The notes under the pieces: model-generated
The model's input: the letters and a program-made list of their open reading frames with translations, nothing else
Database searches by the model: none
Told to the model about the DNA's origin: nothing
In this document: positions 1-54,450 of the stretch, in pieces
Layout of the letters: each line of letters begins with the position of its first letter
Position numbering within the stretch: the stretch's first letter is position 1
Translations under genes and position numbers: made by a program
Source of the DNA: a virus
Strand: one strand, 5' to 3'
DNA: 64,000 nucleotides
Virus record (IMG/VR): IMGVR_UViG_3300031578_000002
Span: 62,001 to 126,000 of that record

Positions 1-2338
1 CATCAAATTTTGTCATAGTAAAATCAGTTTCCCAACCAAATCCATCTAAATTATAATTCATTCCACAATAATATTCGTAAAAATATTTTTGTGTGGAAAA
101 ATCAATTGGTGATATTTGATTTAAAACACTATATAATTCAGCAGCTTTTGAAGGTGCTGGTGTTCCTGACATAAATACTTTTGACATATTCTTGTTCCTG
201 AAGATGTCCTCCTTAAATAGTTTTTTAAAATTTTTGTAGGTATTTGATTTAGTAGATTTTAATCGATGACAATTACTAACTAATATATTATTGGCAAAAT
301 AATTATGATTATCGGCAATTTCTAAATCATATACTTTTTTATTCGATTGACCACATCTTCCAAATTCTCGTCTATTTCCTGATTCCAAAATCTCAATACT
401 CTCCAACCAAACATATTCAATATCTCTGTTTTTCTTTTGTCTAAAAATTTCCATAATTTTCTTTTGTGTGAATTTCCATCCACTTCTATAGCAATTTTTA
501 ATTGAGGTATTGCAATATCTACCGAATAATGAGTTGGTGGTGAAGGTACTATTATTCCCATTTCTTTTAATGGTTTCATTATTGGTGTTGAGAATTCCAT
601 TTCCATATATGTTATTCCAGATATTGCCGAAAAGAGTTTTAATTGCTGTTTTGTTAATTGACCATTCCCACCTCTCGATAGGAAAGTACGACCCCTTGAA
701 GAATTTTTCATTTTCAATAAAGTTTCTTCTGAATACATTGGATTTTTTAATTTCATTCTCATTGAAAGTGCATTTGCTAATTCTGGTCTTTCCTTGTATA
801 CAATTTTTAATGAATTCGATATTTTTACATATGTTTCTTTTGAATGTACCTTTTCTTTTATTTCCACTTGATTCATTCTCCATATTGCAGAACAACTTTT
901 TGAACAAAATTTTCGTGATAATCTTTTTTTTGCTTGAAATTCTTTCCCACAAATTGGGCATGTTATATTCAATAGGGGTGATATGTTTCCATTCAATTCT
1001 TTCGTTATTGCTATTTTCTTCGCATTTTCTTTGGCGGTATATTTTGTCGAACAAGCTTTTGAACATAAAACATGCTCTTTTCTTTTTTTCTGAAATTCCT
1101 TCTGACAGTGTAAACATTTTACTATTGGCAATGATGGAATTTTTTTCAATTCCCATCTTTTTCTCATTGAGCATGTCGTTGAGCAAAACATTTTTTTTGT
1201 ATTTTCTTTTGTTTGAAATTCTATTCCACAACATTGACATAATCTTACGATAATTTGTGGTTTTATTCTTCCCCCTTTTGATAAAATTTTCCCCATATTT
1301 AAAATCTTTAATTGGTATATATTCATTTTTTTCGATAGAAAAAAATTTATGTTCAGGTGTACATTCAATAATTTCACCATTTGATAATTTTACTCTAATT
1401 ATAGTTTTATATCCATTATATAAATACCTATTAATTGATTTTGCTTCAATTTTTTTTAGACTATGATTATAGCTCAAAATTTTAACATTTAATTTATTTT
1501 CAACAATATCCCCGATTTTAATTTTACCAACATTAGTATCTATTAATGTATCATATGTAAAACATTCGTCACTGATAAGACAATCTATTTTACCTATATT
1601 TAATTTTTCGAATTTACTTTTTACTTTATTAAAATCGGATGAATTAAAATACTCATAATTGGTAATAATATATTTAGCGTCTTCGATACTACATGTATTT
1701 TTCTTACCAATAATATGTGCTTTAGAATATGTGAATTTCTCGACTTCATTATAATAATTAAATTTTAATGAATTGGGGGTTATAACAAAAACCTTATTAA
1801 ATGGATTCATTTCACAATATGCAATGGAGATTACAGTTTTACCAGTCCCCATATCGAGTGCCAATAACGCATTTCTAACCACATTTAAGAACATAACACT
1901 TACAATCTGATGTGGATAAAGTTTTATGTTTGGTTTTAAAAATTTATGTACTTGTTCCGAATATTCCTCATATGTTTCTTCAAGTTCTTGTTTATATTTA
2001 ACCCAATGTTCTTTTTTTACATTTAATTCAGCAATAAATTTACGTTTTGCCTCTTCAGCAATTTCAAGTTTTTTTATTTGTTCAATAAATATCTTACGGC
2101 TATCTTCATTACCAAAATCGAAATGAATTTTATTTGATCCTTTATATCTTTTTATTAATAAAAATAATGAAAGCGTTGAAATTTCCCAAACCATCATGCC
2201 TGCATTCCATTTACGTGTGTCTTCAGGGAGTTCTTTTATTCTTTGAGTGATTTGATCATTTATTGGAAACCTAAGATAATACCAATGTCTTTTTGATATT
2301 CTTTCACAATGTACTACGAAAATATTATTGACTTGCAT
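1..2338 (-). CDS. SNF2-type DNA helicase with intein, 3' end outside the window
   Basis: Superfamily 2 helicase of the SNF2 type, probably acting in phage DNA repair, recombination or replication restart (the job UvsW does in T4; that link is inference). The reading frame starts at ATG 2338-2336 and is open to base 1, so the C-terminal helicase lobe lies outside the window. Visible motifs are Walker A (LDMGTGKT, about residue 165), a motif Ia-like stretch VITPNSLKFNYY, motif II ISDE-CH reconstituted across the intein, and motif III-like SGTPAPS. An N-terminal region of about 140 residues precedes the helicase core. An intein interrupts motif II between DE and CH. The upstream neighbour (2396) is on the same strand. 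The frame stays open through the overlapping endonuclease gene at 322-1380, which argues that the helicase is made from one message and matured by protein splicing. Confidence 0.85.
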   Translation of the reverse strand, partial: MQVNNIFVVHCERISKRHWYYLRFPINDQITQRIKELPEDTRKWNAGMMVWEISTLSLFLLIKRYKGSNKIHFDFGNEDSRKIFIEQIKKLEIAEEAKRKFIAELNVKKEHWVKYKQELEETYEEYSEQVHKFLKPNIKLYPHQIVSVMFLNVVRNALLALDMGTGKTVISIAYCEMNPFNKVFVITPNSLKFNYYNEVEKFTYSKAHIIGKKNTCSIEDAKYIITNYEYFNSSDFNKVKSKFEKLNIGKIDCLISDECFTYDTLIDTNVGKIKIGDIVENKLNVKILSYNHSLKKIEAKSINRYLYNGYKTIIRVKLSNGEIIECTPEHKFFSIEKNEYIPIKDFKYGENFIKRGKNKTTNYRKIMSMLWNRISNKRKYKKNVLLNDMLNEKKMGIEKNSIIANSKMFTLSEGISEKKKRACFMFKSLFDKIYRQRKCEENSNNERIEWKHITPIEYNMPNLWERISSKKKIITKILFKKLFCNMENESSGNKRKGTFKRNICKNIEFIKNCIQGKTRISKCTFNENEIKKSNVFRRNFIENEKFFKGSYFPIERWEWSINKTAIKTLFGNIWNNIYGNGILNTNNETIKRNGNNSTFTTNSLFGRYCNTSIKNCYRSGWKFTQKKIMEIFRQKKNRDIEYVWLESIEILESGNRREFGRCGQSNKKVYDLEIADNHNYFANNILVSNCHRLKSTKSNTYKNFKKLFKEDIFRNKNMSKVFMSGTPAPSKAAELYSVLNQISPIDFSTQKYFYEYYCGMNYNLDGFGWETDFTMTKFD
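272..1564 (-). other. Intein (431 codons) in motif II of the SNF2 helicase
   Basis: In-frame protein intron. It begins with Cys1 (codon 1564-1562) in block A, CFTYDTLIDTNVGKIKIGDI. Block B is GEIIECTPEHKF with the usual T-x-x-H. Block F/G is VYDLEIADNHNYFANNIL followed by VSN, ending in Asn (274-272) with Cys+1 of the C-extein next. This is a standard class 1 layout (Cys1, Asn, Cys+1). The host motif becomes DECH after splicing. Between block B and block F lie about 340 codons with no recognisable domain in this frame; that DNA encodes a homing endonuclease in another frame (322-1380). Splicing itself is inferred from the intact terminal motifs. Confidence 0.88.
322..1380 (-). CDS. EDxHD (Vsr-like) homing endonuclease overlapping the intein frame
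   Basis: A 352-codon gene nested inside the intein, read in the other frame from the helicase. Three zinc-knuckle units (CQCC..CSTTC, CLHC..CSKAC, CPIC..CSKSC, about residues 48-160) precede a C-terminal nuclease domain with VDIAIPQLKIAIEVDGNSH and a following Asp-Lys-Arg. This matches the EDxHD family related to Vsr/DUF559 nucleases, known from phage introns and fractured split-intein loci. The upstream ATG lies in intein block B and the TAG falls inside block F, so the gene exactly replaces the usual in-frame endonuclease domain. The true start may be an internal ATG (about 1326 or 1296), since the first 40 codons overlap conserved intein sequence. Likely role: homing of the intein into empty helicase alleles. 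Confidence 0.85.
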   Translation of the reverse strand: MVKLLNVHLNINFFLSKKMNIYQLKILNMGKILSKGGRIKPQIIVRLCQCCGIEFQTKENTKKMFCSTTCSMRKRWELKKIPSLPIVKCLHCQKEFQKKRKEHVLCSKACSTKYTAKENAKKIAITKELNGNISPLLNITCPICGKEFQAKKRLSRKFCSKSCSAIWRMNQVEIKEKVHSKETYVKISNSLKIVYKERPELANALSMRMKLKNPMYSEETLLKMKNSSRGRTFLSRGGNGQLTKQQLKLFSAISGITYMEMEFSTPIMKPLKEMGIIVPSPPTHYSVDIAIPQLKIAIEVDGNSHKRKLWKFLDKRKTEILNMFGWRVLRFWNQEIDENLEDVVNRIKKYMI

Positions 2339-2395
2339 ATTTACATGATATTATGCAAATATAATCAGAATAATTAGAATGTCAACGAAAATATT

Positions 2396-2809
2396 TTAAA
2401 TAACTGTTGTTTTTGTTATTGTGTCGGTAATAACGATATTAATTTGACCATCAACAGGCAATTTTATTTGACCGCATTCATCACCTAAAAAGTCAATTGC
2501 AAACTCGCCTGAGTATCGACCTGATTTAGCTGTTTGTGTTGATTTAAATTTATATGTTAACGTATATTTTTCCTCATCAGGAAATAATTCTCTGTTGGTA
2601 TTAATGACTAAACTTGCAGGTACGTTAGCAATACGATATCGCCCAGTTTCCGTATTTATCATTGAGAATGTAATTGCAACATTATCAAGCATATCATCGG
2701 TAATGTCATATTGCTGTCGAACTTGTTGAAGCAATGGATATTTTAATTCGGGTAAAGTACTGTCTTTTTTTATAAAGAAATTTTTTATATTAAATGTTGA
2801 GTAATTCAT
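2396..2809 (-). CDS. Hypothetical beta-rich virion-type protein (137 aa)
   Basis: Not firmly recognised. The protein looks beta-rich: a segment about possible interactions of type ITFSMINTETGRYRI is followed by YTLTYKFKSTQTAKSGRYSG, EFAIDFLGDE and a closing LPVDGQINIVITD. That general pattern (small polar beta-sandwich with a stepwise strand order) resembles N-terminal domains of baseplate upper proteins (BppU-like), a weak analogy only. No signal peptide or membrane segment. It sits between the helicase gene and a small membrane protein, all on the minus strand. A tail or baseplate accessory protein is the most likely identity, but this is inference from style and position. Confidence 0.5.
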   Translation of the reverse strand: MNYSTFNIKNFFIKKDSTLPELKYPLLQQVRQQYDITDDMLDNVAITFSMINTETGRYRIANVPASLVINTNRELFPDEEKYTLTYKFKSTQTAKSGRYSGEFAIDFLGDECGQIKLPVDGQINIVITDTITKTTVI

Positions 2810-2834
2810 TTATTTGTTGTTAATTATTCTACTG

Positions 2835-3212
2835 TTATTGCCTGTCAATTTCTGACATTAATTTTTCTCTATTGCCGCCAATTAAATTGTTCCTTTTCTT
2901 TAGTGTTGCAGCAATTCCATCGCCAATTAAACCCAATTCTAGTGAATCTATTTCCTCAAAAGAATGTCCGGTAAAACCAGTGTAAAATTTAAATAATACA
3001 TATGAACATAATATTGTCGTTAAATATCTGCGCCAATTATCATGAAACCAAAAGTGCCAACTCCATTTTTTTGGCGTGTTTGTACTATTCATATCACGAC
3101 CACTTGTTTCTGTTAGTCCATATATTATATATCCAATAATAAAATACCACGCATATCCAAATAATTGATTTCCAGTGTAATCTCCAAATATTGTTTTTAT
3201 TATTTCGTTCAT
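2835..3212 (-). CDS. Small membrane protein, possible holin (125 aa)
   Basis: Two hydrophobic segments are clear: LFGYAWYFIIGYIIYGL (about residues 17-33) and YLTTILCSYVLFKFY (about 62-77), separated by a polar Trp/His-rich loop (KKWSWHFWFHDNWRR). A weaker amphipathic stretch, LGLIGDGIAATL, follows, and the C-terminus is charged. Size, topology and basic tail fit a phage holin or another inner-membrane protein, but no lysis enzyme is adjacent, so the function is a guess. A copy of the GTATTTATA element lies 14 nt upstream of the ATG, suggesting expression late in infection. Confidence 0.55.
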   Translation of the reverse strand: MNEIIKTIFGDYTGNQLFGYAWYFIIGYIIYGLTETSGRDMNSTNTPKKWSWHFWFHDNWRRYLTTILCSYVLFKFYTGFTGHSFEEIDSLELGLIGDGIAATLKKRNNLIGGNREKLMSEIDRQ

Positions 3213-3226
3213 ATTATTACTTTTTC

Positions 3227-3235
3227 TATAAATAC
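3227..3235 (-). promoter_or_regulatory. Putative late promoter element GTATTTATA
   Basis: Coding-strand GTATTTATA (TATAAATAC on the plus strand) 14 nt upstream of the ATG of the membrane protein gene at 2835-3212. It belongs to the recurring set described in the findings. Confidence 0.55.
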
Positions 3236-3250
3236 AATTTAATTTTAATT

Positions 3251-3391
3251 CTAAGTATAAAATGGAAAATTCTTATCTTTTGTTCCCATAACGCCATTTG
3301 ATTGATAATGAATATCTACTAAAATGATAAATGGCTCATTAGTACTACCAGCTGGAGCACCACTTAATAAATCAATTGTGAATGTTGCCAT
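3251..3391 (-). CDS. Small hypothetical protein (46 aa)
   Basis: A short open frame, MATFTIDLLSGAPAGSTNEP and onward, ending in TAG at 3253-3251. It is preceded by its own copy of the GTATTTAT element 17 nt upstream and followed by the next gene after about 40 nt, so its spacing matches the neighbouring real genes. Amino-acid composition is ordinary and polar; no membrane segment or known domain. A small virion or accessory protein is possible. Confidence 0.5.
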   Translation of the reverse strand: MATFTIDLLSGAPAGSTNEPFIILVDIHYQSNGVMGTKDKNFPFYT

Positions 3392-3408
3392 CGGTCATCT
3401 CTTTAATA

Positions 3409-3416
3409 ATAAATAC
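3409..3416 (-). promoter_or_regulatory. Putative late promoter element GTATTTAT
   Basis: Coding-strand GTATTTATT, 17 nt upstream of the 46-aa gene at 3251-3391. It lies at the downstream edge of the IS607-type insertion. Confidence 0.45.
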
Positions 3417-3556
3417 TGAATATTTTTGAAATCAACTAAAGTTATTTTAAATTAAAAATGAAGCAAATTTACTTTATTTTTCAATACTTTTTACAACCAT
3501 CTGTTAAATATATATGTAATTATGAATTAAACAGTAATTAATAATATGTAATTATA

Positions 3557-4834
3557 TTACCAATTTATAGTCGAAACTATTGGCGATACTGCAATCACCT
3601 CTATTCCATTATTAACAATCATTTTGCCAATATTTGGAACTGCTTTTCTTAATATGTTTAATGAACCATTTAAATCTGCATTAATTAACCCACCAGATTT
3701 TGATTTAAATAGTCCCCGTTTCACCCTACTACCACAATATATCTCATGCTTACATATTTCTTCATTATCAATAAAACTACATTTTGATGTGTAACTCTCT
3801 TCATTAACCATTACTGTAATTCCTTCTAATTTAGCTTTATACAATAGCATTTCAATAAACCTACTATGTGGTATATTAACGAAATTTTGATTATTCCTTT
3901 TTCCAATATTTATATCTTGCTTCCACTCCCTATTATTACCAATTATTATGGTATTAATATTGTTGAATACTAAATGATTTATAATATATCGGCTTGATTT
4001 GTGCAAATAATCATTTATCTTATTATTTCTTTTATTGGTTAAATTATTTATTCTTTTGCTTGTCTTTAATTGTATTTTTTCTCCCCTTTTATTAGTATAA
4101 TGATTTAAATCGGATTTAAATTTACCCATTTTTTTATTGTAATACTGATTAATTGATTTCAACGGTTTACCGTTTATTATGATTGGTTTTATTACATTAC
4201 TTCCGATACAAGCTAGATTATTTAATCCCAAATCTATTGAGCAATATCTATTATTGTTCTCTTTTAATTTATTTTCTTGTTTCTCATAAACAACTTCAAC
4301 CACATAATGATTACCTTTAGGTATTATTCTACATTGTTTTAACGTATTAATATTTACGTTAGTTTTAATTTTTATGTTTGTTTTAGATAGTTTAATTATA
4401 TTATTTTTTATTTCTGTTTTAGATATGCTACCTAATTCATATATTACTGGATATCTGCCATTTTTATCTTTATATGATGGCAAACTAGGTTTACCCCTAT
4501 ATTTAGACTTATTTCTTGAGTAATCCTTAATTGTAGCAAAAAATGATTTCCAATTTTTATCTAATGACATTAGTGTTTGATTCGATACTTTTCTTGGTAA
4601 TCGAACATAATCACAATCATTTGTATTAATCATTAATTTATTAATATCATAATAATTAAAATAATTAGCATGTTCAATTAAACCCAATTGTTTATCTCCG
4701 CTTGATTTAATAAATTCTTGTCTTACAATATAATTAGCCCTATTATATAAATTTTTTGATAAAAAACATAATTTATCCATTTCACAATAAAATGGATTTG
4801 ATTTTTTAATAATATGTTTTTCAGTTAAAATCAT
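3557..4834 (-). CDS. tnpB: TnpB RNA-guided nuclease homologue, IS607 type (425 aa)
   Basis: RuvC-fold TnpB of the subgroup found with IS607. Conserved parts seen: SIDLGLNNLACIG (first catalytic Asp, about residue 200), GNNREWKQDINIGKRNNQNF, then EESYTSKCSF (catalytic Glu) and NADLNGSLNILRK (last catalytic Asp). The zinc-binding loop between the last two looks reduced (one Cys before and two around KHEIYCG), as is common in this subgroup. Length is normal and the triad is intact, so activity is plausible. The family cuts DNA guided by an omega RNA transcribed from the element end, which would lie around 3440-3600 here. It starts 2 nt after the recombinase stop, indicating translational coupling. 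Confidence 0.88.
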   Translation of the reverse strand: MILTEKHIIKKSNPFYCEMDKLCFLSKNLYNRANYIVRQEFIKSSGDKQLGLIEHANYFNYYDINKLMINTNDCDYVRLPRKVSNQTLMSLDKNWKSFFATIKDYSRNKSKYRGKPSLPSYKDKNGRYPVIYELGSISKTEIKNNIIKLSKTNIKIKTNVNINTLKQCRIIPKGNHYVVEVVYEKQENKLKENNNRYCSIDLGLNNLACIGSNVIKPIIINGKPLKSINQYYNKKMGKFKSDLNHYTNKRGEKIQLKTSKRINNLTNKRNNKINDYLHKSSRYIINHLVFNNINTIIIGNNREWKQDINIGKRNNQNFVNIPHSRFIEMLLYKAKLEGITVMVNEESYTSKCSFIDNEEICKHEIYCGSRVKRGLFKSKSGGLINADLNGSLNILRKAVPNIGKMIVNNGIEVIAVSPIVSTINW

Positions 4835-44969: not shown

Positions 44970-45281
44970 TTATTTAATATATTCAGTTAAATACATTTCG
45001 TAATATGACTTTGCTCTATCTAATGGGTATGGAATTCTTATTAACGTGCCATCGGGAATATCAAATTCTGTTAAAAAGCCACCATTAGCATATATAATTA
45101 AAAAATCATAAAATGGATTTCCATAATATTTCTGAGATAAAATATCTAATCTACTTGTTTCACCATTCCAATATTCATATTTATCACTGGTACTTACTGG
45201 AATGTTAATAAATGGCATTAATTCAGTCGTTCCATCTGACTTTTTTAATATTGAATATCTATTATAATCTCTATACGGCAT
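44970..45281 (-). CDS. Baseplate wedge protein, gp53/LysM-like (103 aa)
   Basis: Small protein with MPYRDYNRYSILKKSDGTTE, then YWNGETSRLDILSQKYYGNP and FYDFLIIYANGGFLTEFDIP plus GTLIRIPYPLDRAKSY. This is the LysM-like pattern of T4 gp53 and P2 gpX-type tail proteins (Y-x-G-x(5)-D-x-x-A..Y-G-x-P). The start at ATG 45281 is 4 nt after the preceding stop; a longer frame to 45446 overlaps that gene and is rejected. It joins the baseplate wedge in T4. Confidence 0.75.
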   Translation of the reverse strand: MPYRDYNRYSILKKSDGTTELMPFINIPVSTSDKYEYWNGETSRLDILSQKYYGNPFYDFLIIYANGGFLTEFDIPDGTLIRIPYPLDRAKSYYEMYLTEYIK

Positions 45282-45285
45282 AATT

Positions 45286-48200
45286 TTATATTGTATTTTT
45301 CTTATCTGTAATATTAATATTTTCACGATATGTTGCATTATCAGTTGCTGCCTTAGATGGCTTTGCATATAATCCTTGACCACTATACGTTGAATTTGCA
45401 TAATAATTATATGCAATCGCATTTTGAAGAGCATCAATTGGTCCAATTAATGATTGACCGCCAATTAACTTCATTTGTAATGTAACTTTTGCAATCATTG
45501 GTTGTACACCAAACCCCTCTGGGTTCATATCCCAAGGTGCCTCATTATAATCAATTGTAACGTTTTCAATAATAATTTTAGTATAAAAGAAATCTCCTAC
45601 ACGAAGAATACAAATTGGTTGTTTACCAAACACTGAATTTTTTGCACGAATTTCATTTGTTATTGGATCAATAATTGGATGATCTTTTGATGCACCTTGT
45701 CTTGTACACTGTTGTAAGAACGTTAACCTTCTATGAAAATCTTCGGGTGTTTGTGTTTGTAATATAGGGTAATAATTGTGATTAATTACTGCTTCATGGC
45801 CTTCCAATATTGCTTTGTCTCTTGGGTTAAACAACACGTCATTAATACCATTATCGAAATTAATTATTTGTGACTCTAATTCAACGATTCTTGTTTCTAA
45901 ATCACTTTTTGTGTTAATTTGATCAATTGTCAGTTTTTGTTCTTTTGATGGTATGACTTTACTATTTCTTGCAATTTTAATTGATACATATCTTTCTTGT
46001 TTAACTTTTATATTATTTACTTTTGTTGGATCACCACCATCAATGCTACCACCAACACTACCCAAATTTATTGGCTGATTAAATAATGTATCAGTTTTCA
46101 TATCAGGAAACATTGCTTTTAATCTTGATGTAATTAATGTTTCAACAGCATTAATTCTTCTTTGAGTAAGTTCTTTATTATAACTATCACCATTTAATAT
46201 TGTTGAATGACCTTCAAGGGTAATTTGATAATAATCACGATTTAATTCATTTGAAAATGCCTTGATTAAATTATCATTTAATTTACAATTACTATTAAAT
46301 TGACCAGAGGTTCCTGTTGCCTGATACTGTGATATTGTTGATCCCAATAAACTGTAGGTATTATCAGTGTTTTTTATTAATCCATTAATAAAATAAGCAT
46401 TCATATTTAAACCATCACTATCACCCGCATTATTACCATTTGGTAAACCTTTAATTATTTCATAAATATAATTATTATACATGGTATCGATAATTGTGTT
46501 TACTGTGGCATCATTATGTGGTGTGTCATTAGGAAAATATACTGTGACTTCATCAAAACTTAAATTTGTATCAGGTTCTTGATTAGACTCAATAGGTCCT
46601 TCAATTGCAGCTAATTTAGCTTTTAAATCTTCAAGTTGTTTTTGAATATTATCAATTGTTGCTTTTGTTGTTAATGGATTTCCACCAAAAGCAAAAAAGT
46701 CAGCAACGTTCTTTTTTGAATTGTTTTTATCTTTATCATTGTAAATATTTATTAGATGTTGAGGATGATCCATTAATAACGTAAAGTTTAATGTTGCACT
46801 TCTTTCAGAATTCATATAATTATACATTGGTTCATTCCTACCCAACATAACTGTTGATTCATATTTTGCAACAGAAGTTTCATTAATTTGTATATCATAT
46901 GGGGGAAACCACATCATACGTCCATTGAATGGACCAACTTCTGTTACAGGTATTGGAGAATCATCATCAATAAATGCATTATTACCACTTTTTCTTGCTG
47001 TAATAGCTAAATTTTCAATACTAAACATTAAGTTTCTATTGTCAATACCACTTCCAACATTATTTAATGTTGGGTGAATTCTTGGTATAACAGTTCTATA
47101 ATTAACAGAATTTGGATTTCCACCATATCCTTTATTACCGACATATCTTATAGATTTATCAAATCTATCGTATTTATCAATAATTGAATGTTGGCGATTG
47201 CCAATTTTATTATTAGTTTGACTTGCAATTGCATAATCACTATTATTTCCTTTCCATAATGGTGAACCATTAAATCCAACAATACTATCGTCATTAATAA
47301 ATGCTTTTCTTGTTATATCAACAAATGCACCAGAACTTGCATTTAACAAATTTCTTGTATATTCTAATAAACCCCGTTGTATTTTATATTCATATACAAT
47401 ATCAACGGATTGTGAATTGTCCAATATAGTATTATCATCATCGCCACGTAAATTAGATAATTGGCCTTTAACATTATCAGTAATTCCATCTCTACCCCAA
47501 ATTAACTGATTATCAATATTATTTCTATCTTCATTACTAATATAATCTTCGGGAACTCTATCGTGTTTTATGGTTTTATCAACATTTCCAAAATTATTTT
47601 TTACATAAGTAATATCAGGAGCATATTCATTAATTCCATTAGTATTACTATTTGCTAAACTAATATTCATTTCAGTATTAGCAATACCATCAGAATCCCA
47701 GCTTGTTGATTGAATTAATAAATATGGATGTTGAATACTATTATAATAATTAAAAAAAACCACATTTCTACTATATATTGTCGTAATTTGATTTTGTAAT
47801 TTTACATCAGCAAATTTAGAACCACTATATTTTACAATTGCAGTACTTGTTTCATCGCCACCAGCATCAACATATGATTTATATATGTTTCTGTTAATGT
47901 TCAAATAAAACTGTCCTAATTGTGCATTACCAGTATTTGCAATATAATTAGCATTAGATGTTCCACCACTAAATGTATCTGGTACAGATACTTGATTGAA
48001 ATATAGTGCATTTTCAATTTTATCTAAAAAACTTGCATTTCTATCTTTTGTAATACTCCAATTAATTGGTGATGAAAATAATTTACCTTTACCAGTAATT
48101 GCACCTACAATGTCAATTGATGGTAAATATTGTTTTGCAATATGTGATGCAGAATTATAAAACATTTGTTTTCCTAACATCACCGTACCAATGTCAGTTA

Positions 48201-48468
48201 ATGGTGTTGAATTACCAATTCTTGAGATTAAACTATTTTGAAGATTAACTGCATTATATTGAGGAATTACACTAAGAACACTGCCAATTCCTTTTGCAAT
48301 TTTTCCTTTATCTTTAAGTGAAAGTTTATCAATATTTTCATATTCATTATCAAGATTATAAGGATTACGTGAAATTAAAAAATTTCTAAATTCTTCAGAT
48401 GTTTGAAAATTATTATTAATACCACTAATAATTTTATCTGTTGTTAATCTTGAATCACCATCAGCCAT
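45286..48468 (-). CDS. Large baseplate/tail protein with OmpA-like domain (1060 aa)
   Basis: The N-terminal about 560 residues are not recognised but include repeated structural phrases (DGRMMWFPPYDIQINETSVA-like GRMMWFPPYDIQINETSVAK). At about residues 640-810 there is an OmpA-like fold: VTVYFPNDTPHNDATVNTII, then DYYQITLEGHSTILNGDSYN and KELTQRRINAVETLITSR, close to the peptidoglycan-binding consensus. The C-terminal about 150 residues (FHRRLTFLQQCTRQGASKD, ICILRVGDFFYTKIIIENVT, WDMNPEGFGVQPMIAKVTLQ) resemble tube-initiating baseplate proteins of contractile phages. It lies between the tape measure and the gp53-like gene, as expected for a baseplate hub or tube initiator. Confidence 0.7.
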   Translation of the reverse strand: MADGDSRLTTDKIISGINNNFQTSEEFRNFLISRNPYNLDNEYENIDKLSLKDKGKIAKGIGSVLSVIPQYNAVNLQNSLISRIGNSTPLTDIGTVMLGKQMFYNSASHIAKQYLPSIDIVGAITGKGKLFSSPINWSITKDRNASFLDKIENALYFNQVSVPDTFSGGTSNANYIANTGNAQLGQFYLNINRNIYKSYVDAGGDETSTAIVKYSGSKFADVKLQNQITTIYSRNVVFFNYYNSIQHPYLLIQSTSWDSDGIANTEMNISLANSNTNGINEYAPDITYVKNNFGNVDKTIKHDRVPEDYISNEDRNNIDNQLIWGRDGITDNVKGQLSNLRGDDDNTILDNSQSVDIVYEYKIQRGLLEYTRNLLNASSGAFVDITRKAFINDDSIVGFNGSPLWKGNNSDYAIASQTNNKIGNRQHSIIDKYDRFDKSIRYVGNKGYGGNPNSVNYRTVIPRIHPTLNNVGSGIDNRNLMFSIENLAITARKSGNNAFIDDDSPIPVTEVGPFNGRMMWFPPYDIQINETSVAKYESTVMLGRNEPMYNYMNSERSATLNFTLLMDHPQHLINIYNDKDKNNSKKNVADFFAFGGNPLTTKATIDNIQKQLEDLKAKLAAIEGPIESNQEPDTNLSFDEVTVYFPNDTPHNDATVNTIIDTMYNNYIYEIIKGLPNGNNAGDSDGLNMNAYFINGLIKNTDNTYSLLGSTISQYQATGTSGQFNSNCKLNDNLIKAFSNELNRDYYQITLEGHSTILNGDSYNKELTQRRINAVETLITSRLKAMFPDMKTDTLFNQPINLGSVGGSIDGGDPTKVNNIKVKQERYVSIKIARNSKVIPSKEQKLTIDQINTKSDLETRIVELESQIINFDNGINDVLFNPRDKAILEGHEAVINHNYYPILQTQTPEDFHRRLTFLQQCTRQGASKDHPIIDPITNEIRAKNSVFGKQPICILRVGDFFYTKIIIENVTIDYNEAPWDMNPEGFGVQPMIAKVTLQMKLIGGQSLIGPIDALQNAIAYNYYANSTYSGQGLYAKPSKAATDNATYRENINITDKKNTI

Positions 48469-48881: not shown

Positions 48882-51347
48882 TTATTTACTACTTTTTCCT
48901 CCCTTAGCAAATTCATTTTTTTCAATTGCGATAACAGTATTATAAACTTTATGCATAAATTTATCACCGTCAAGATTTAATGTAATATCATTTGATAATA
49001 ATACTTTACCATTATTTGCAAATTCAACTTTTAATGGAGATTTTAATAAGTTTGATAATTCAGCTAACATACCACCACCCTTAATATTCATTCCAGAAAT
49101 TGATTTTACTGCATTTTCAACGGCAATAAAATCATCTTTGCTTCCAGACATCATTGTATTAATTTGCTTAAATGCATCACCAACTTTTTCTAAATCAGGT
49201 GCATGTTTTGCAATTCTATTTAATAATAATGAAAATGCTGCAACACCAACAACACCAGTTGTCATCCCCATCATTGCCAATGAAATAGCACCAATTCCAC
49301 CAGCTAGTGTAAACATTGATGGGCCAGCATCTTTTCCAGCGATAACTAATTTAGATAAACCTTCTGACATATATCCAATTCCTGCAGCTGCAATACCAAT
49401 ACCTGCACCAATACCTAGCGCAACAACCCCTAATGCCGCTAATCCAGCAGCACCAACAGTTGCTGTGGTTCCTAAAATTGCTAATGGTATAACAAAAGCA
49501 GCAATAGCACCAGCTAATGATAAAATAACTTTAGGTAGTGCATTTAATCCTGTTTTATCTAGTTTTGACATAGAATCAGCAAGTTTGCTAATGCCTGTAG
49601 CTGCTAAAGCAATACCACCACCAATACCTAATGCAGCAGCACCGATTCCACCACCAGTAGCTAAATTCTTTATACCTTTAGCTTTTGTTAATTCAGCAGC
49701 CCCTTTACGTATTCCACCTTTTGGTGTGAATAAACTTCCACCAGATGTTGTACTTTTATTGTTTGATAAAAATTTACCAACACTACCTCTACCTCCAAGT
49801 AATTTTCCACTTTCAGCCCATTTATTGGCACCAGTAATAATTAAATTTGAGGTAATTCGCCATGCACCTGCTGCGGCAAGTAATATACCAGCAGCAGCAG
49901 CAATTCCTCCACCGCCCTTTCCAGCAAGTTTACTAAATTGGTCTGCTAGTCCACTAAGTGGTTTTAGTATAATATTTATACCTCTTAATAATGGTAATAA
50001 TGCAGATTTTAATGTTTCAATTGTTGCTTTAAATGTTTCGTCAAAAGTCATTGCATTTTTTGCTCGATCTTGTAATAAAACTTGTTCTTTAGCAAATGAT
50101 TTTGCTTGTTTTTCAGTTAAGGTACTAATATCTGTCATAGTACCAGCAAGTTCGACTTGAAATCTTCCGGATTGTTTGTTAAAAATTGCTGCACCTTGAA
50201 TAAGTTCCTTTTCTCTTCCAGTTAAGCCCGTACCTGCTAATTGTCGATTTATTTTTTCCATATCAGCACGTCTTTCAGCAATTTCAGTAATACTTTCTTT
50301 TGACATACCTAATGATTTAGCAACAGCAGCTAATCTATCCCTATCAGCTGGACTTATAAATTTTTCAAAACTACCATCAGACATTTTTCTAAATGTTACA
50401 ATACCTTTAGTCATATCTGATATTTTTTCAGTAAATTTGGCTGGGTCATTACGTGATAAAAATAACATTTGAAATGGATCAGTTTTTGCAAATTCACCAC
50501 CCATTACCTGTAATTGTGCGGTTAAATCAATTGCACCTTCAAGTGTTCTAGAAACATCTGCAGCATTTAATGCATCACTAATATTAATTTTAAATTTTTC
50601 TGCATACATTGCCATTTGAGCAAAGCCCTTAACTCCTTGTTGAAAGGTATATGTATTTAATTTTTTAAAATTATCACTAACATTTTTTAATACTTTAGTT
50701 GTATTAACACCCATTCTTTCTGAAGTGTCAACAACACCTTGAACATAATTCATTGTGGATTTCGCATCAAATCCCATTATTTCAAATTGTGCACCTAATT
50801 TTGTTGCTTGTTCAATACCTAATCCAGTACCTTTACCAATTGAGGTAATATCCTCAACCATTTGTGCAGACATTACACGTGCTCTACCAGTTTCATCAGC
50901 ATAACCTTGCATTATTGATTGAGTATCAGCAAGACTTCCACCCATTCTTGTTACAAATCCGGCACTTTTCTCAAATGATCCTCTCATCATTTCAGCTTTA
51001 GCACCACTCATTCCAAGACTAAGAATAGTACTTCTAATTATTTTATCTTGTTGTTGTAAATATCCCCAACCAATTTTAAATAAATCATTAGTACCTTTAA
51101 TAAGTTTAATTGTATTTTCTCTGGACTTATTAGATTCTTTTATGACATTATTATACTTTTGTTCTTGCTCAACTAATATTTTTTGACGTTTTAAAAGTTC
51201 ATCATAGGCAATTTTAGCATCTTCATTGCCACCATTACTTTCTTTCTGTAATTCAGAAAGTCTTTTGTAATTATCATTAATTTCAGCAGTAATAAGTTTT
51301 TGTTGAATTAATAAATCTGTTGATGATTTTAAATCGTCTTTTGCCAT
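48882..51347 (-). CDS. Tail tape measure protein (821 aa)
   Basis: Sets tail length and is ejected with DNA. N-terminal coiled-coil helices (TDLLIQQKLITAEINDNYKR) precede the characteristic region GTNDLFKIGWGYLQQQDKI, RSTILSLGMSGAKAEMMRG and repeated helical units (FAQMAMYAEKFKINISDAL). From about residue 490 come several Gly/Ala-rich hydrophobic segments (GIAAAAGILLAAAGAW, GIGAAALGIGGGIALAATGI, then one long segment LAALGVVALGIGAGIGIAAA) typical of tape measures. At about 0.15 nm per residue the tail would be near 120 nm (family rule, not measured). It is preceded by the chaperone pair. Confidence 0.82.
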   Translation of the reverse strand: MAKDDLKSSTDLLIQQKLITAEINDNYKRLSELQKESNGGNEDAKIAYDELLKRQKILVEQEQKYNNVIKESNKSRENTIKLIKGTNDLFKIGWGYLQQQDKIIRSTILSLGMSGAKAEMMRGSFEKSAGFVTRMGGSLADTQSIMQGYADETGRARVMSAQMVEDITSIGKGTGLGIEQATKLGAQFEIMGFDAKSTMNYVQGVVDTSERMGVNTTKVLKNVSDNFKKLNTYTFQQGVKGFAQMAMYAEKFKINISDALNAADVSRTLEGAIDLTAQLQVMGGEFAKTDPFQMLFLSRNDPAKFTEKISDMTKGIVTFRKMSDGSFEKFISPADRDRLAAVAKSLGMSKESITEIAERRADMEKINRQLAGTGLTGREKELIQGAAIFNKQSGRFQVELAGTMTDISTLTEKQAKSFAKEQVLLQDRAKNAMTFDETFKATIETLKSALLPLLRGINIILKPLSGLADQFSKLAGKGGGGIAAAAGILLAAAGAWRITSNLIITGANKWAESGKLLGGRGSVGKFLSNNKSTTSGGSLFTPKGGIRKGAAELTKAKGIKNLATGGGIGAAALGIGGGIALAATGISKLADSMSKLDKTGLNALPKVILSLAGAIAAFVIPLAILGTTATVGAAGLAALGVVALGIGAGIGIAAAGIGYMSEGLSKLVIAGKDAGPSMFTLAGGIGAISLAMMGMTTGVVGVAAFSLLLNRIAKHAPDLEKVGDAFKQINTMMSGSKDDFIAVENAVKSISGMNIKGGGMLAELSNLLKSPLKVEFANNGKVLLSNDITLNLDGDKFMHKVYNTVIAIEKNEFAKGGKSSK

Positions 51348-51377: not shown

Positions 51378-51404
51378 AGATCAAGATTTTTATTTTCTTG
51401 ATCT
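51378..51404 (-). terminator. Rho-independent terminator overlapping the small ORF's end
   Basis: 9-bp stem AGATCAAGA with TCTTGATCT, 9-nt loop; T-rich sequence follows on the minus strand. It lies between the chaperone frameshift ORF and the tape measure promoter. Confidence 0.6.
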
Positions 51405-51569
51405 CATGTTATTTTTATTTCTTTCTCGTTCTTGTATTTTTTCTATTTCTTCATTTTCCTTTTCTAATAAGAACAAAAAATGTCGTCTACGATATATTGG
51501 TAAATTTTCAATATATTCGGCTTGAAATTTAGCATGTTTTGTTAAAATGTAAATTTCTTCATCAATCAT
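51390..51569 (-). CDS. Tail-chaperone C-terminal extension ORF (59 aa), reached by -1 frameshift
   Basis: A 59-residue charged, helical ORF (MIDEEIYILTKHAKFQAEYI ... RNKNNMRSRK). It lies directly between the gp26-like gene and the tape measure and is in the -1 frame of that gene, with no stop between a nine-T run and its ATG. This is the position and arrangement of the tail assembly chaperone extension (lambda gpT; gp51 next to gp26 in some T4-like phages). It may be expressed only as a fusion, alone from its own ATG, or both. Confidence 0.65.
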   Translation of the reverse strand: MIDEEIYILTKHAKFQAEYIENLPIYRRRHFLFLLEKENEEIEKIQERERNKNNMRSRK

Positions 51570-51586
51570 TTTTTTATATTCCCCCG

Positions 51587-52507
51587 CTAGGTGTTTGGGA
51601 AAAAAAAATCTAATCCAACACTTAAATCAGCATTAAATGTATATCCATCTTTAGCTGTAAAGGTATATTCCATATCAACATCAGGACCAACAGCTAATAT
51701 TTTTTTACGAATAGTAAATGCATCTAATGCAGGCATTGCATCAACAAATTTATCAATATATGTTCTATCGGTATTATCATTAATTGAAATAATACCGGCT
51801 TTTAATCTCATTGTTGAATATTGACTATATTCTTCACCATAAGCCTCTTTAATTGACTCGGCCTTTTTAAATATCATATTATCTTCACCTGATGTAAGTA
51901 ATTTAAATTTAACCATTTTTTTACGCATTGGTAACTCAACAAAAAAATGTCCATTTTGATCGGGAAATTCAGTAATTTCTTTATATCTTAGTTTAAGTAA
52001 ATCAACTGTTGTTTTAAATGGAATATTTGTTCGTGGATCAGTAACTTGTACTGTATAATCTGAACCATAACTTGAACTACGTAAAAATAAAATAATTGCA
52101 TTTCTATCACCAGAAAGTAAATCATCAGGATTAACACCTTTAGTCTTTATTTTACGTTTTAATAAAATATTTAACACTGTACCACTTTCAATTAGCGATG
52201 GTGTTGTTAATAAATCTTCATCTTTAGATGTCATATATTCAACATTAACCTCAGATAACCCGTTCGAGTAAAACAAACCTTTTGATGGTAACTTAACAAT
52301 TTCATATGTAGTTATTAAATCAGGATCGGTTTCTTTTGACATTGTTTTTTCAAAATCATCTTGGTTAAATGATGTTGATTTTGAAGTAAAATTGGAGTTT
52401 AATTCTACTGGTGTATTAACTGATTCAGAAGTATTGTGAACATCTTTATATTTTTTTAACATTTCAGAAACAGATTCTTTTTGTGGTATATTTTCTTGTA
52501 AATTCAT
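51587..52507 (-). CDS. gp26-like protein, tail assembly chaperone candidate (306 aa)
   Basis: Similar to the T4_baseplate (gp26) family: YEIVKLPSKGLFYSNGLSEV, VEYMTSKDEDLLTTPSLIES, VNPDDLLSGDRNAIILFLRS and GSDYTVQVTDPRTNIPFKTT are the conserved blocks. A disordered N-terminus (about 60 residues) precedes them. The end GLDFFFPNT is encoded by a nine-T run that can serve as a -1 slip site, giving a fusion with the 59-residue ORF. Immediately upstream of the tape measure, as tail chaperones are. It is divergent from the phoH remnant. Confidence 0.75.
   Translation of the reverse strand: MNLQENIPQKESVSEMLKKYKDVHNTSESVNTPVELNSNFTSKSTSFNQDDFEKTMSKETDPDLITTYEIVKLPSKGLFYSNGLSEVNVEYMTSKDEDLLTTPSLIESGTVLNILLKRKIKTKGVNPDDLLSGDRNAIILFLRSSSYGSDYTVQVTDPRTNIPFKTTVDLLKLRYKEITEFPDQNGHFFVELPMRKKMVKFKLLTSGEDNMIFKKAESIKEAYGEEYSQYSTMRLKAGIISINDNTDRTYIDKFVDAMPALDAFTIRKKILAVGPDVDMEYTFTAKDGYTFNADLSVGLDFFFPNT
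51599..51608 (-). promoter_or_regulatory. Predicted -1 ribosomal frameshift site
   Basis: On the minus strand, GA followed by nine T and CCC. Zero frame reads GAT TTT TTT TTC CCA AAC ACC TAG; slipping back one base on T-TTT-TTC leads into an open frame through CCC AAA CAC CTA and on to the ATG at 51569. It sits six codons before the gp26-like stop. Confidence 0.6.
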
Positions 52508-52549: not shown

Positions 52550-52653
52550 TCTAAAAAAAATTTTAGATTATTCAAGATAATTAATTAATGTTCGTATTAG
52601 TATATAATTAAATGAATATAAATTACTGCTGTTAATTAAAGTAAAACTTGAAT

Positions 52654-53091
52654 ATGACTAAAAATAAATTTAAAGATGAGGCTGAATATAATAACATGTT
52701 ATCAGTAAATAGTAATTCACAAATTTTAAAAGTAAAAGAAGAAATAAATAGACTAATACCGAAAGACATTAAAATAATTGCTAAAAATGAAAGTCAAATA
52801 AAATTAATAAATTCAATAAAAAATAATGAGATAACAATATGTTCTGGATTAGCTGGTTCAGGTAAAACTTTTGTTGCTGTTGCATTTGCTTTAAATTTAT
52901 TGACCAAATTAAATAATCGATATAAAAAAATTTATTTAGTTAAGTCAGTAACTGCGTTGAAGGGAGAAGAACTTGGATATTTAAAAGGGGATTTAAATGA
53001 AAAAATTGGTCCATTTATGTGGTCATTTTATAAAACGGAGCGTAAATCCCACCCATCGTTTTTACGTGGGTGGGATGTAAGCGGTCACTAA
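52654..53091 (+). pseudogene. phoH: phoH-like gene, N-terminal remnant broken by an insertion
   Basis: PhoH-family P-loop ATPase start: QIKLINSIKNNEITICSGLA, Walker A AGSGKTFVAVAFALNLL, and KKIYLVKSVTALKGEELGYL then KGDLNEKIGPFMW. After SFYKTE (53040) the frame runs into the IS605-type left end and stops at 53091. No sequence for the second half (Walker B DEAQ region) exists on the far side of the element, so the gene is truncated, not merely interrupted. The start is ATG 52654; the annotation with an upstream TTG is unnecessary. Normal family length is well over 200 residues; about 129 remain. Confidence 0.82.
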
Positions 53092-53250: not shown

Positions 53251-54450
53251 ATGAAAGTAATTAATAAGACATATAGATTTAGGATTTCACCTAATAAAGA
53301 GCAGGAAGTGTTACTAAATAAGCACTTTGGTTGTTCTCGCTTTGTCTATAATTACTTTTTAAATGAACGTAAAGAGCAATATCAACAAGATAAGAAATCA
53401 GACAATTATTATGCACAAGCAAAAACTCTAACTGATTTAAAAAAGCAAGAAGATACTATTTGGTTAAAAGAGGTAAATAGTCAAACCCTTCAATTTGCTT
53501 TACGTTCTTTAGATACTGCTTACGTAAATTTCTTTAGAGGTAATGCACAATTTCCAAAATTTAAATCAAGAAAACACAAAAATACTTTCACAATTCCCCA
53601 ATTCGGAGTGTTAACCGATGACAAAATATCAATACCTAAATTTAAAGAAGGAATTAAAGTAAAATTACATAGAAAGGTTAATGGCAAAATTGGTAAAATG
53701 AGTATTACCCGAACACCTACTGGTAAATATTATGTATCAATATTCACGGAACAACATATTGAAGAATTACTTAAAACAAATAAACAAGTTGGAATTGACC
53801 TTGGAATTAAAGATTTTGTAATTACATCTGATAATAAGAAATTTAAAAATAATAAATATACAAAGAAATATGCAAGAGAATTAAAGAAAGCACAACAGCA
53901 TCTTTCTCGTAAAACAAAAGGTAGCAATTCGTTTGAAAAACAAAAACTCAAAGTTGCCTTAATTCACGAGAAAATTGCAAGTTGTAGATTAGACGCTTTA
54001 CATAAAGTTTCACATCAACTGGTTAATCAATATGACTTATTATCAGTTGAGGACTTGAATGTAAAAGGTATGATTAAAAACCACAAATTATCCAAACATA
54101 TTGCTGATGCAAGTTGGGGTACTTTTGTTACATTACTACAATACAAATGTAATTGGTATGGAAAAGAACTTGTAAAAGTAAATCGTTTCTATCCTTCAAG
54201 CAAGACTTGTAATGTTTGTGGATGGATAAATCAAGACTTAAATCTTTTGATTAGAGAGTGGACTTGTAATAATTGTGGTGAACATCACGACAGAGATGTT
54301 AATGCAAGTATCAATATTCTAAAAGAAGGATTAAAAATATATCGTCAGGAACTGGCGATTACAAAGGTGGAGAGTAAATCAGACGTTAGTAATAACGCAC
54401 GCTCAATGAAACCTGAAGCCCAACCCATCGCCTTTGGCGTGGGTGGGTAG
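53251..54450 (+). CDS. tnpB: TnpB RNA-guided nuclease homologue, IS605 type (399 aa)
   Basis: Complete TnpB, same type as the copy at 20949 but clearly diverged. N-terminus MKVINKTYRFRISPNKEQEV, then GCSRFVYNYFLNERKEQYQQ. RuvC triad intact: VGIDLGIKDFVIT (Asp), SVEDLNVKGM (Glu) and HHDRDVNASINIL (Asp). Zinc finger CNVCG with CNNCG. The guide of its omega RNA would start at the right end (about 54457) and read into the phage DNA before the 54471 gene. Ends with a tail rich in polar residues overlapping the RNA scaffold. Confidence 0.9.
   Translation: MKVINKTYRFRISPNKEQEVLLNKHFGCSRFVYNYFLNERKEQYQQDKKSDNYYAQAKTLTDLKKQEDTIWLKEVNSQTLQFALRSLDTAYVNFFRGNAQFPKFKSRKHKNTFTIPQFGVLTDDKISIPKFKEGIKVKLHRKVNGKIGKMSITRTPTGKYYVSIFTEQHIEELLKTNKQVGIDLGIKDFVITSDNKKFKNNKYTKKYARELKKAQQHLSRKTKGSNSFEKQKLKVALIHEKIASCRLDALHKVSHQLVNQYDLLSVEDLNVKGMIKNHKLSKHIADASWGTFVTLLQYKCNWYGKELVKVNRFYPSSKTCNVCGWINQDLNLLIREWTCNNCGEHHDRDVNASINILKEGLKIYRQELAITKVESKSDVSNNARSMKPEAQPIAFGVGG

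What the first reader, a model, noticed from the sequence alone, without database searches (positions are those of the whole stretch)
51390..51608. Predicted -1 programmed frameshift making a tail-chaperone fusion upstream of the tape measure
A run of nine T followed by CCC lies six codons before the gp26-like stop. One step back leads into a frame with no stop, through ten codons, to the ATG of a 59-codon ORF that ends just before the tape measure. This reproduces the lambda gpG/gpGT plan in a T4-like tail module, where gp26-type proteins are not usually drawn as frameshifted. It suggests that gp26-like and gp51-like proteins here are a frameshifted chaperone pair.
Basis: partly seen in the sequence, partly recalled or inferred. 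Interest (0 to 1): 0.62.

Follow-up and report, generated by a model that had tools for sequence, protein, structure and literature searches.

The report
Frameshifted tail-assembly chaperone in T4-like phage
An uncultured T4-like phage almost certainly makes a longer version of its tail-building chaperone by letting the ribosome slip back one base on a run of T's, a strategy already described for phages of this kind, seen here as a strongly conserved new example.

Summary
The PF12322 (T4 gp26/gp51 family) gene at 52507-51587 (-) ends GAT TTT TTT TTC CCA AAC ACC TAG. One step back opens a stop-free frame to 51390, 42 nt before an 821-aa tape-measure-like ORF.

In 61 distinct sequences (window included) the -1 relation is always kept. 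An in-phase U UUU UUY heptamer is always present. The codon-position signal flips from frame 0 to frame -1 across the site. The ten bridging codons evolve as -1 codons. The internal ATG is sometimes lost, so the 59-codon ORF is the tail of a fusion (372 aa), not a gene.

The downstream domain is homologous to cyanophage gp51, and through it to the C-terminus of T4 gp51. T4 has two PF12322 genes, divergently oriented; this clade has one.

Best reading: -1 ribosomal frameshifting that gives TAC-N and TAC-NC. Transcriptional slippage is not excluded for the window alone. Vladimirov et al. 2022 identified the T4-like chaperone genes, so this is a new member of a known kind.

Less expected: a related clade (66 distinct sequences) joins the same two domains through a +1 (or -2) shift near FF[WYF]P.

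The parts
51587..52507 (-). TAC-N: PF12322 (T4 gp26/gp51 family) protein, 306 aa, frame-0 product, stop codon included
   Evidence: Pfam E=2.4e-9 over the curated cut-off; phrog_150 E=1.3e-9; AlphaFold2 mean pLDDT 85 and Foldseek matches to T4-like baseplate hub proteins in BFVD
51599..51608 (-). Slip site T TTT TTT TTC: overlapping in-phase heptamers U UUU UUU (51608-51602) and U UUU UUC (51605-51599)
   Evidence: Sequence; an in-phase UUUUUUY heptamer is present in 61/61 distinct clade sequences
51587..51589 (-). Frame-0 stop TAG that ends TAC-N
51570..51599 (-). Bridge: ten -1-frame codons (PKHLAGEYKK) between the slip site and the internal ATG
   Evidence: Frame -1 third positions most variable (p=5e-5); synonymous/nonsynonymous differences 3047/1010 in frame -1 against 197/3802 and 164/3937 in the other frames
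51390..51569 (-). 59-codon -1-frame ORF (stop included): C-terminal domain of the fusion TAC-NC (gp51-like)
   Evidence: Homologous to the C domains of the +1 clade and of cyanophage gp51; AlphaFold2 helix at residues 4-23 spans the bridge and the internal Met
48882..51347 (-). Putative tape measure protein, 821 aa
   Evidence: Follows 42 nt after the C domain; relatives have a 817-857-aa ORF at the same place where it is complete, with few exceptions; weak similarity to the annotated tape measure of Flavobacterium phage immuto (E=2e-4). Function inferred from position.

Best explanation
The locus encodes a tail-assembly chaperone in two forms. Most ribosomes read frame 0 and stop at TAG 51589-51587, giving TAC-N (306 aa). 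A minority slip back one base on GAU UUU UUU UUC, where tRNA-Phe can re-pair one base upstream, and read on for 69 codons. This gives TAC-NC (372 aa): TAC-N with a C-terminal helical domain. By analogy with lambda gpG/gpGT, TAC-N coats the tape measure protein encoded next, and the extra domain recruits tail tube subunits. Shown here: sequence, conservation, frame-specific selection, domain homology and synteny. Inferred: that the ribosome (not RNA polymerase) slips, the minority ratio, and the chaperone role.
For: -1 relation and open frame in 61/61 distinct sequences; in-phase UUUUUUY in 61/61 and fixed Phe codon choice at the site; coding phase flips at the site; bridge selected as -1 codons; internal ATG dispensable; one predicted helix spans bridge and internal Met. 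The same arrangement with T TTT TTC is found in 80/80 cyanophage-type loci, and in Syn9, Cr30 and HTVC008M. Position directly before the tape-measure-like ORF. C domain homologous by chain to the T4 gp51 C-terminus. One PF12322 gene here against two in T4 and RB43. Published assignment of the family as tail-assembly chaperones.
Against: No experimental evidence of slipping or of either protein. No stimulatory RNA structure found. U9 could also cause transcriptional slippage. The PDB fold match to the HK97 chaperone 2ob9 is not significant (E=1.1). The window C domain shows no direct profile match to T4 gp51.
Confidence: 0.83

Rival explanations
1. Transcriptional slippage: RNA polymerase adds one U in the U9 run, so a fraction of mRNAs encode the same fusion without ribosomal slipping.
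For: The run is 8-9 T in every clade member; long homopolymer runs are known sites of polymerase slippage (general knowledge). The protein product would be identical.
Against: The homologous junction in cyanophages has only six T's (GT TTT TTC or AT TTT TTC) yet keeps the -1 plan in 80/80 loci. Every clade member keeps a heptamer in ribosomal phase, even the nine in which one base of the run or its flank changed.
Confidence: 0.12
2. The 59-codon ORF is a separate small gene translated by re-initiation at ATG 51569 after the TAG at 51587, as annotated for gp51 in cyanophages.
For: An ATG is present in the window and in 55/61 distinct sequences; P-SSM2 is annotated with a separate gp51.
Against: The ten codons before the ATG are under -1-frame protein-level selection. 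ATG is replaced by TTA, GTT or ATA in four sequences and TTG in two. The predicted first helix begins before the Met. In T4 the domain is part of one longer protein.
Confidence: 0.04
3. The protein is a structural baseplate hub component rather than a tail-assembly chaperone; the extension would make a minor structural variant.
For: Family names say baseplate hub; older T4 literature reports genetic support for gp26 in the hub (PMC3004832).
Against: The same review tabulates gp26 and gp51 as hub assembly chaperones and says gp51 is absent from the final particle. The pair sits directly before the tape-measure-like ORF, as G/GT-type genes do. Vladimirov 2022 assigns the T4-like genes as tail-assembly chaperones.
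Confidence: 0.06
4. Chance: a T-run and an open frame without function.
For: T9 runs occur five times on the two strands of this AT-rich window.
Against: Conservation across 61 distinct sequences and the wobble-phase switch.
Confidence: 0.01

Closest known systems
T4-like tail-assembly chaperones TAC-N/TAC-NC (Vladimirov, Gautam & Davidson 2022, Virology 566:9-15; PMID 34826709; paper not held, cited through PMC10885494 and PMC12846349)
   Same: Same family (PF12322), same place before the tape measure, short and long forms; poly-T slip sites are cited for TAC-N genes of T4-like phages.
   Different: The window belongs to an uncultured clade with U UUU UUC inside DFFFP and a stop three codons later; whether the paper covers this clade could not be checked.
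T4 genes 26 and 51
   Same: Both PF12322; gp51 has the C-terminal domain that matches cyanophage gp51.
   Different: T4 has two separate, divergent genes, so no frameshift; the window has one gene and an overlapping -1 frame.
Cyanophage gp26/gp51 (P-SSM2, Syn9)
   Same: -1 frame, T TTT TTC just before the stop, small gp51 C domain, 80/80 loci.
   Different: Stop follows one codon after the site; only six T's; C domain only distantly similar (hhalign 77%).
Lambda gpG/gpGT frameshift (Levin 1993; Xu 2004)
   Same: Two forms of a chaperone from a -1 shift near the end of the first ORF, directly before the tape measure (PMC5009743).
   Different: Different slip sequence (GGGAAAG in lambda, from memory); no detectable sequence homology was found to any solved chaperone.
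Vandenendeviridae/Andersonviridae chaperone frameshift (phage Adele, PMC12846349)
   Same: -1 frame kept open in all genomes and a conserved poly-T motif at the end of TAC-N.
   Different: GTTTTT motif; different myovirus family; homology to the window gene not tested.

Membership tests
T4-like tail-assembly chaperone family (PF12322) | Match to the PF12322 profile above its curated cut-off | tested here: met
   37.6 bits against cut-off 24.5, E=2.4e-9
T4-like tail-assembly chaperone family (PF12322) | Gene lies directly upstream of the tape measure gene | tested here: met
   C domain ends 42 nt before an 821-aa ORF; relatives the same. The ORF's identity as tape measure is itself inferred.
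T4-like tail-assembly chaperone family (PF12322) | Long form carries a C-terminal domain homologous to the gp51 C-terminus | tested here: met
   Only by chain: window to cyanophage gp51 77% (E=2e-5), cyanophage gp51 to T4 gp51 96.8% (E=3e-10); direct comparison negative
T4 two-gene (26 + 51) strategy | Second, fused PF12322 gene in the genome | tested here: not met
   One PF12322 match in the window record and one above cut-off in each of seven large relatives, two in T4 and RB43. The window record may be a fragment.
G/GT-type programmed -1 frameshift | In-phase X XXY YYZ heptamer near the end of the first ORF | tested here: met
   U UUU UUU and U UUU UUC in the window; at least one in 61/61
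G/GT-type programmed -1 frameshift | Uninterrupted overlapping -1 frame under coding selection from the slip site on | tested here: met
G/GT-type programmed -1 frameshift | Fusion product made at a defined minor ratio by the ribosome | not testable with these tools
   Needs reporter assay, mass spectrometry and mRNA sequencing
G/GT-type programmed -1 frameshift | Stimulatory RNA structure (an accessory of many sites, not required of all) | tested here: not met
   Window z-score -0.27; no consensus structure in 60 relatives; pseudoknots not modelled
Lambda/HK97 tail-assembly chaperone fold | Structural similarity to a solved chaperone | tested here: inconclusive
   2ob9_B (HK97 chaperone) has the highest probability of the listed PDB hits (0.38) but E=1.1 and TMq 0.20
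Lambda/HK97 tail-assembly chaperone fold | Binding to tape measure and tail tube proteins | not testable with these tools
   Needs biochemistry

The most novel reading that the evidence does not exclude
Within one homologous chaperone junction the recoding direction has switched. The window's clade and cyanophages use -1 on UUUUUUY. A large related clade (66 distinct sequences, including Flavobacterium and Microcystis phages) must shift +1 (or -2) near F-F-[W/Y/F]-P, where the CC of the proline codon is invariant, to reach the same C domain. If undescribed, this is a natural experiment on how a phage lineage changes the sign of a programmed frameshift while keeping the protein fusion.
Probability: 0.4. 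Interest if true: 0.5.

Novelty: new member of a known kind. Interest (0 to 1): 0.35.

Why it matters
It adds a strongly conserved sequence case for frameshifting in T4-like chaperones, in a clade of phages with records up to 349 kb and only distant relatives (below 40% identity) among deposited phages. It fits the view that T4's separate genes 26 and 51 replaced a frameshift. In these phages and in cyanophages, gp26 and the small gp51 should be annotated as one recoded gene. The comparison with the +1 clade makes it testable which sequence changes turn a -1 site into a +1 site.

Tried and rejected
CCCAAAC (51599-51593) as the slip site: in phase in only 14/61, rejected as the conserved signal. 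Downstream hairpin: window z-score -0.27, and alifold on 60 relatives gave no structure; pseudoknots were not modelled. Independent start at the internal ATG: not conserved. Direct homology of the C domain to T4 gp51: negative; found only through cyanophage gp51. Solved structures by sequence: none. Structure match of the C domain in the PDB: none. PHROG/Pfam for the C domain and the 821-aa ORF: no meaningful match. The Vladimirov paper was not held, so its content comes from two later papers and, for its abstract, from memory.

Full report
OBSERVATION. The window is part of a 140,815-base IMG/VR virus record. On the minus strand, a 306-aa ORF (52507-51587) ends GAT TTT TTT TTC CCA AAC ACC TAG. 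Frame -1 is open from 40 nt before this stop to 51390 and reads ...FFFPKHLAGEYKKMIDEEIYILTKHAKFQAEYIENLPIYRRRHFLFLLEKENEEIEKIQERERNKNNMRSRK. T9 runs are not rare here (five of at least 9 on the two strands of a 28.9% GC window), so the case rests on conservation.

IDENTITY. The 306-aa protein is PF12322 (E=2.4e-9) and phrog_150 (E=1.3e-9). T4 gp26 and gp51 are both PF12322 (8.8e-64 and 3.9e-52). gp51 extends beyond gp26 at its C-terminus (phrog_150 positions 13-280 against 14-235), and the two are similar to each other (BLASTP E=2e-6). In T4 they are divergent neighbours, so no shift between them is possible there.

RELATIVES OF THE WINDOW'S CLADE. Scans of viral contigs and one genome contig gave, with the window, 82 sequences, 61 of them distinct. 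All 61 keep the -1 relation and an uninterrupted frame. The core is GA[T/C] TTT TTT T[T/C][C/T]. In phase, 52 hold both U UUU UUU and U UUU UUC, 6 hold only UUUUUUC and 3 only UUUUUUU; none lacks one. At the site the three Phe codons are 100%, 100% and 0% TTT, while seven other conserved Phe columns are 69-92% TTT.

WHERE THE FRAME CHANGES. Column entropy is highest at frame-0 third positions upstream of the site (excess 0.64 bits, p=1e-4), at frame -1 third positions between stop and ATG (0.78 bits, p=5e-5), and at frame -1 third positions beyond the ATG (0.81 bits, 0 of 20,000 shuffles). In the bridge, single-base codon differences are synonymous 3047 to 1010 in frame -1, against 197 to 3802 and 164 to 3937 in the other frames. 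These pairwise counts are not independent of ancestry, but ancestry alone does not explain the contrast between frames. The internal ATG is replaced in 6/61. AlphaFold2 of the -1 domain (mean pLDDT 89) puts one helix at residues 4-23, across the bridge and the internal Met. The selected product is therefore the fusion.

WIDER FAMILY. All 80 loci found with P-SSM2 gp26 have T TTT TTC directly before the last codon and stop, with the gp51 domain in frame -1. Syn9 and Caulobacter phage Cr30 and HTVC008M (read, translated) agree. A sister group at 35-42% identity needs a +1 (or -2) shift: 66 distinct sequences, nearly all with F-F-[W/Y/F]-P, the proline CC invariant and its third base free. There the nearest upstream +1 stop can lie only 14 nt before the proline codon, so the shift must happen at or after this motif. 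The C domains are homologous: window to +1 clade 96.7%, window to cyanophage gp51 77%, cyanophage gp51 to the T4 gp51 C-terminus 96.8%; window to T4 directly is negative.

COPY NUMBER. One PF12322 gene is found in the window record, in seven large clade records (counting matches above cut-off) and in cyanophages and several others, but two in T4 and RB43. This fits the idea that a second, fused gene replaces the frameshift. Records may be incomplete.

MECHANISM. The simplest reading is tRNA-Phe slippage by -1 on U UUU UUY. It gives TAC-N (306 aa) and a minority TAC-NC (372 aa), encoded just before the 821-aa putative tape measure (817-857 aa in nearly all relatives where it is complete). No stimulatory RNA structure was found. 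Transcriptional slippage on U8-U9 would give the same protein. The six-T sites in cyanophages and the preservation of phase argue against it, but do not exclude it for the window. Function as a chaperone is inferred from family, position and published work. The PDB fold search gives the HK97 chaperone 2ob9 the highest probability of the listed hits, without significance.

PRIOR KNOWLEDGE. [quoted passage not shown] Vladimirov et al. 2022 then identified the T4-like chaperone genes. PMC10885494 cites it for one short gene plus one fused long gene in some T4-like phages. PMC12846349 cites it for poly-T slip sites in TAC-N genes of T4-like phages. From memory, its abstract names genes 26 and 51 and says frameshifting is conserved in several T4-like groups; the paper is not held. 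The window is therefore a new, well-supported member of a known kind.

VERDICT. Observation confirmed, interpretation supported with corrections, novelty limited. The open points are the mode of slippage in the window and the +1 sister clade.

Noticed in passing
L014-L017 and most of L032-L099 (e.g. L016:6632-6937): Related phages carry the homologous C domain in the +1 (or -2) frame after a conserved F-F-[W/Y/F]-P motif, so the direction of recoding differs from the window's clade.
   Followed up: partly
window 52648-53091 and 53251-54450 (+): A PhoH-like ORF matches only profile positions 2-84 of 205 and stops shortly before an IS200/IS605-type TnpB transposase ORF; no other PhoH match in the record. 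The phoH gene looks truncated by the insertion.
   Followed up: partly
L020:3803-5229 (T4 genes 26 and 51): T4 gp26 and gp51 are paralogues in PF12322, and gp51 has an extra C-terminal domain like cyanophage gp51; in line with the published chaperone assignment.
   Followed up: yes
L269 (JAKQEK010000355.1): The only clade member found among prokaryote genome contigs lies in a Bacteroidota metagenome-assembled genome, and distant relatives infect Flavobacterium: a weak hint of a Bacteroidota host.
   Followed up: no
L018/L115 (Stenotrophomonas phage RAS14), L019 (LR756511.1), L116 (Rhodothermus phage RM378): More distant PF12322 genes also end over a longer ORF in another frame: -1 in RAS14 and LR756511.1, +1 in RM378; slip sites not analysed.
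   Followed up: no
window 45286-48468 and 44970-45446 (-): A 1060-aa ORF downstream of the tape measure has a weak OmpA-like stretch (E=0.0023, below cut-off); the next ORF resembles a baseplate wedge subunit (phrog_7145, E=6.4e-5).
   Followed up: no
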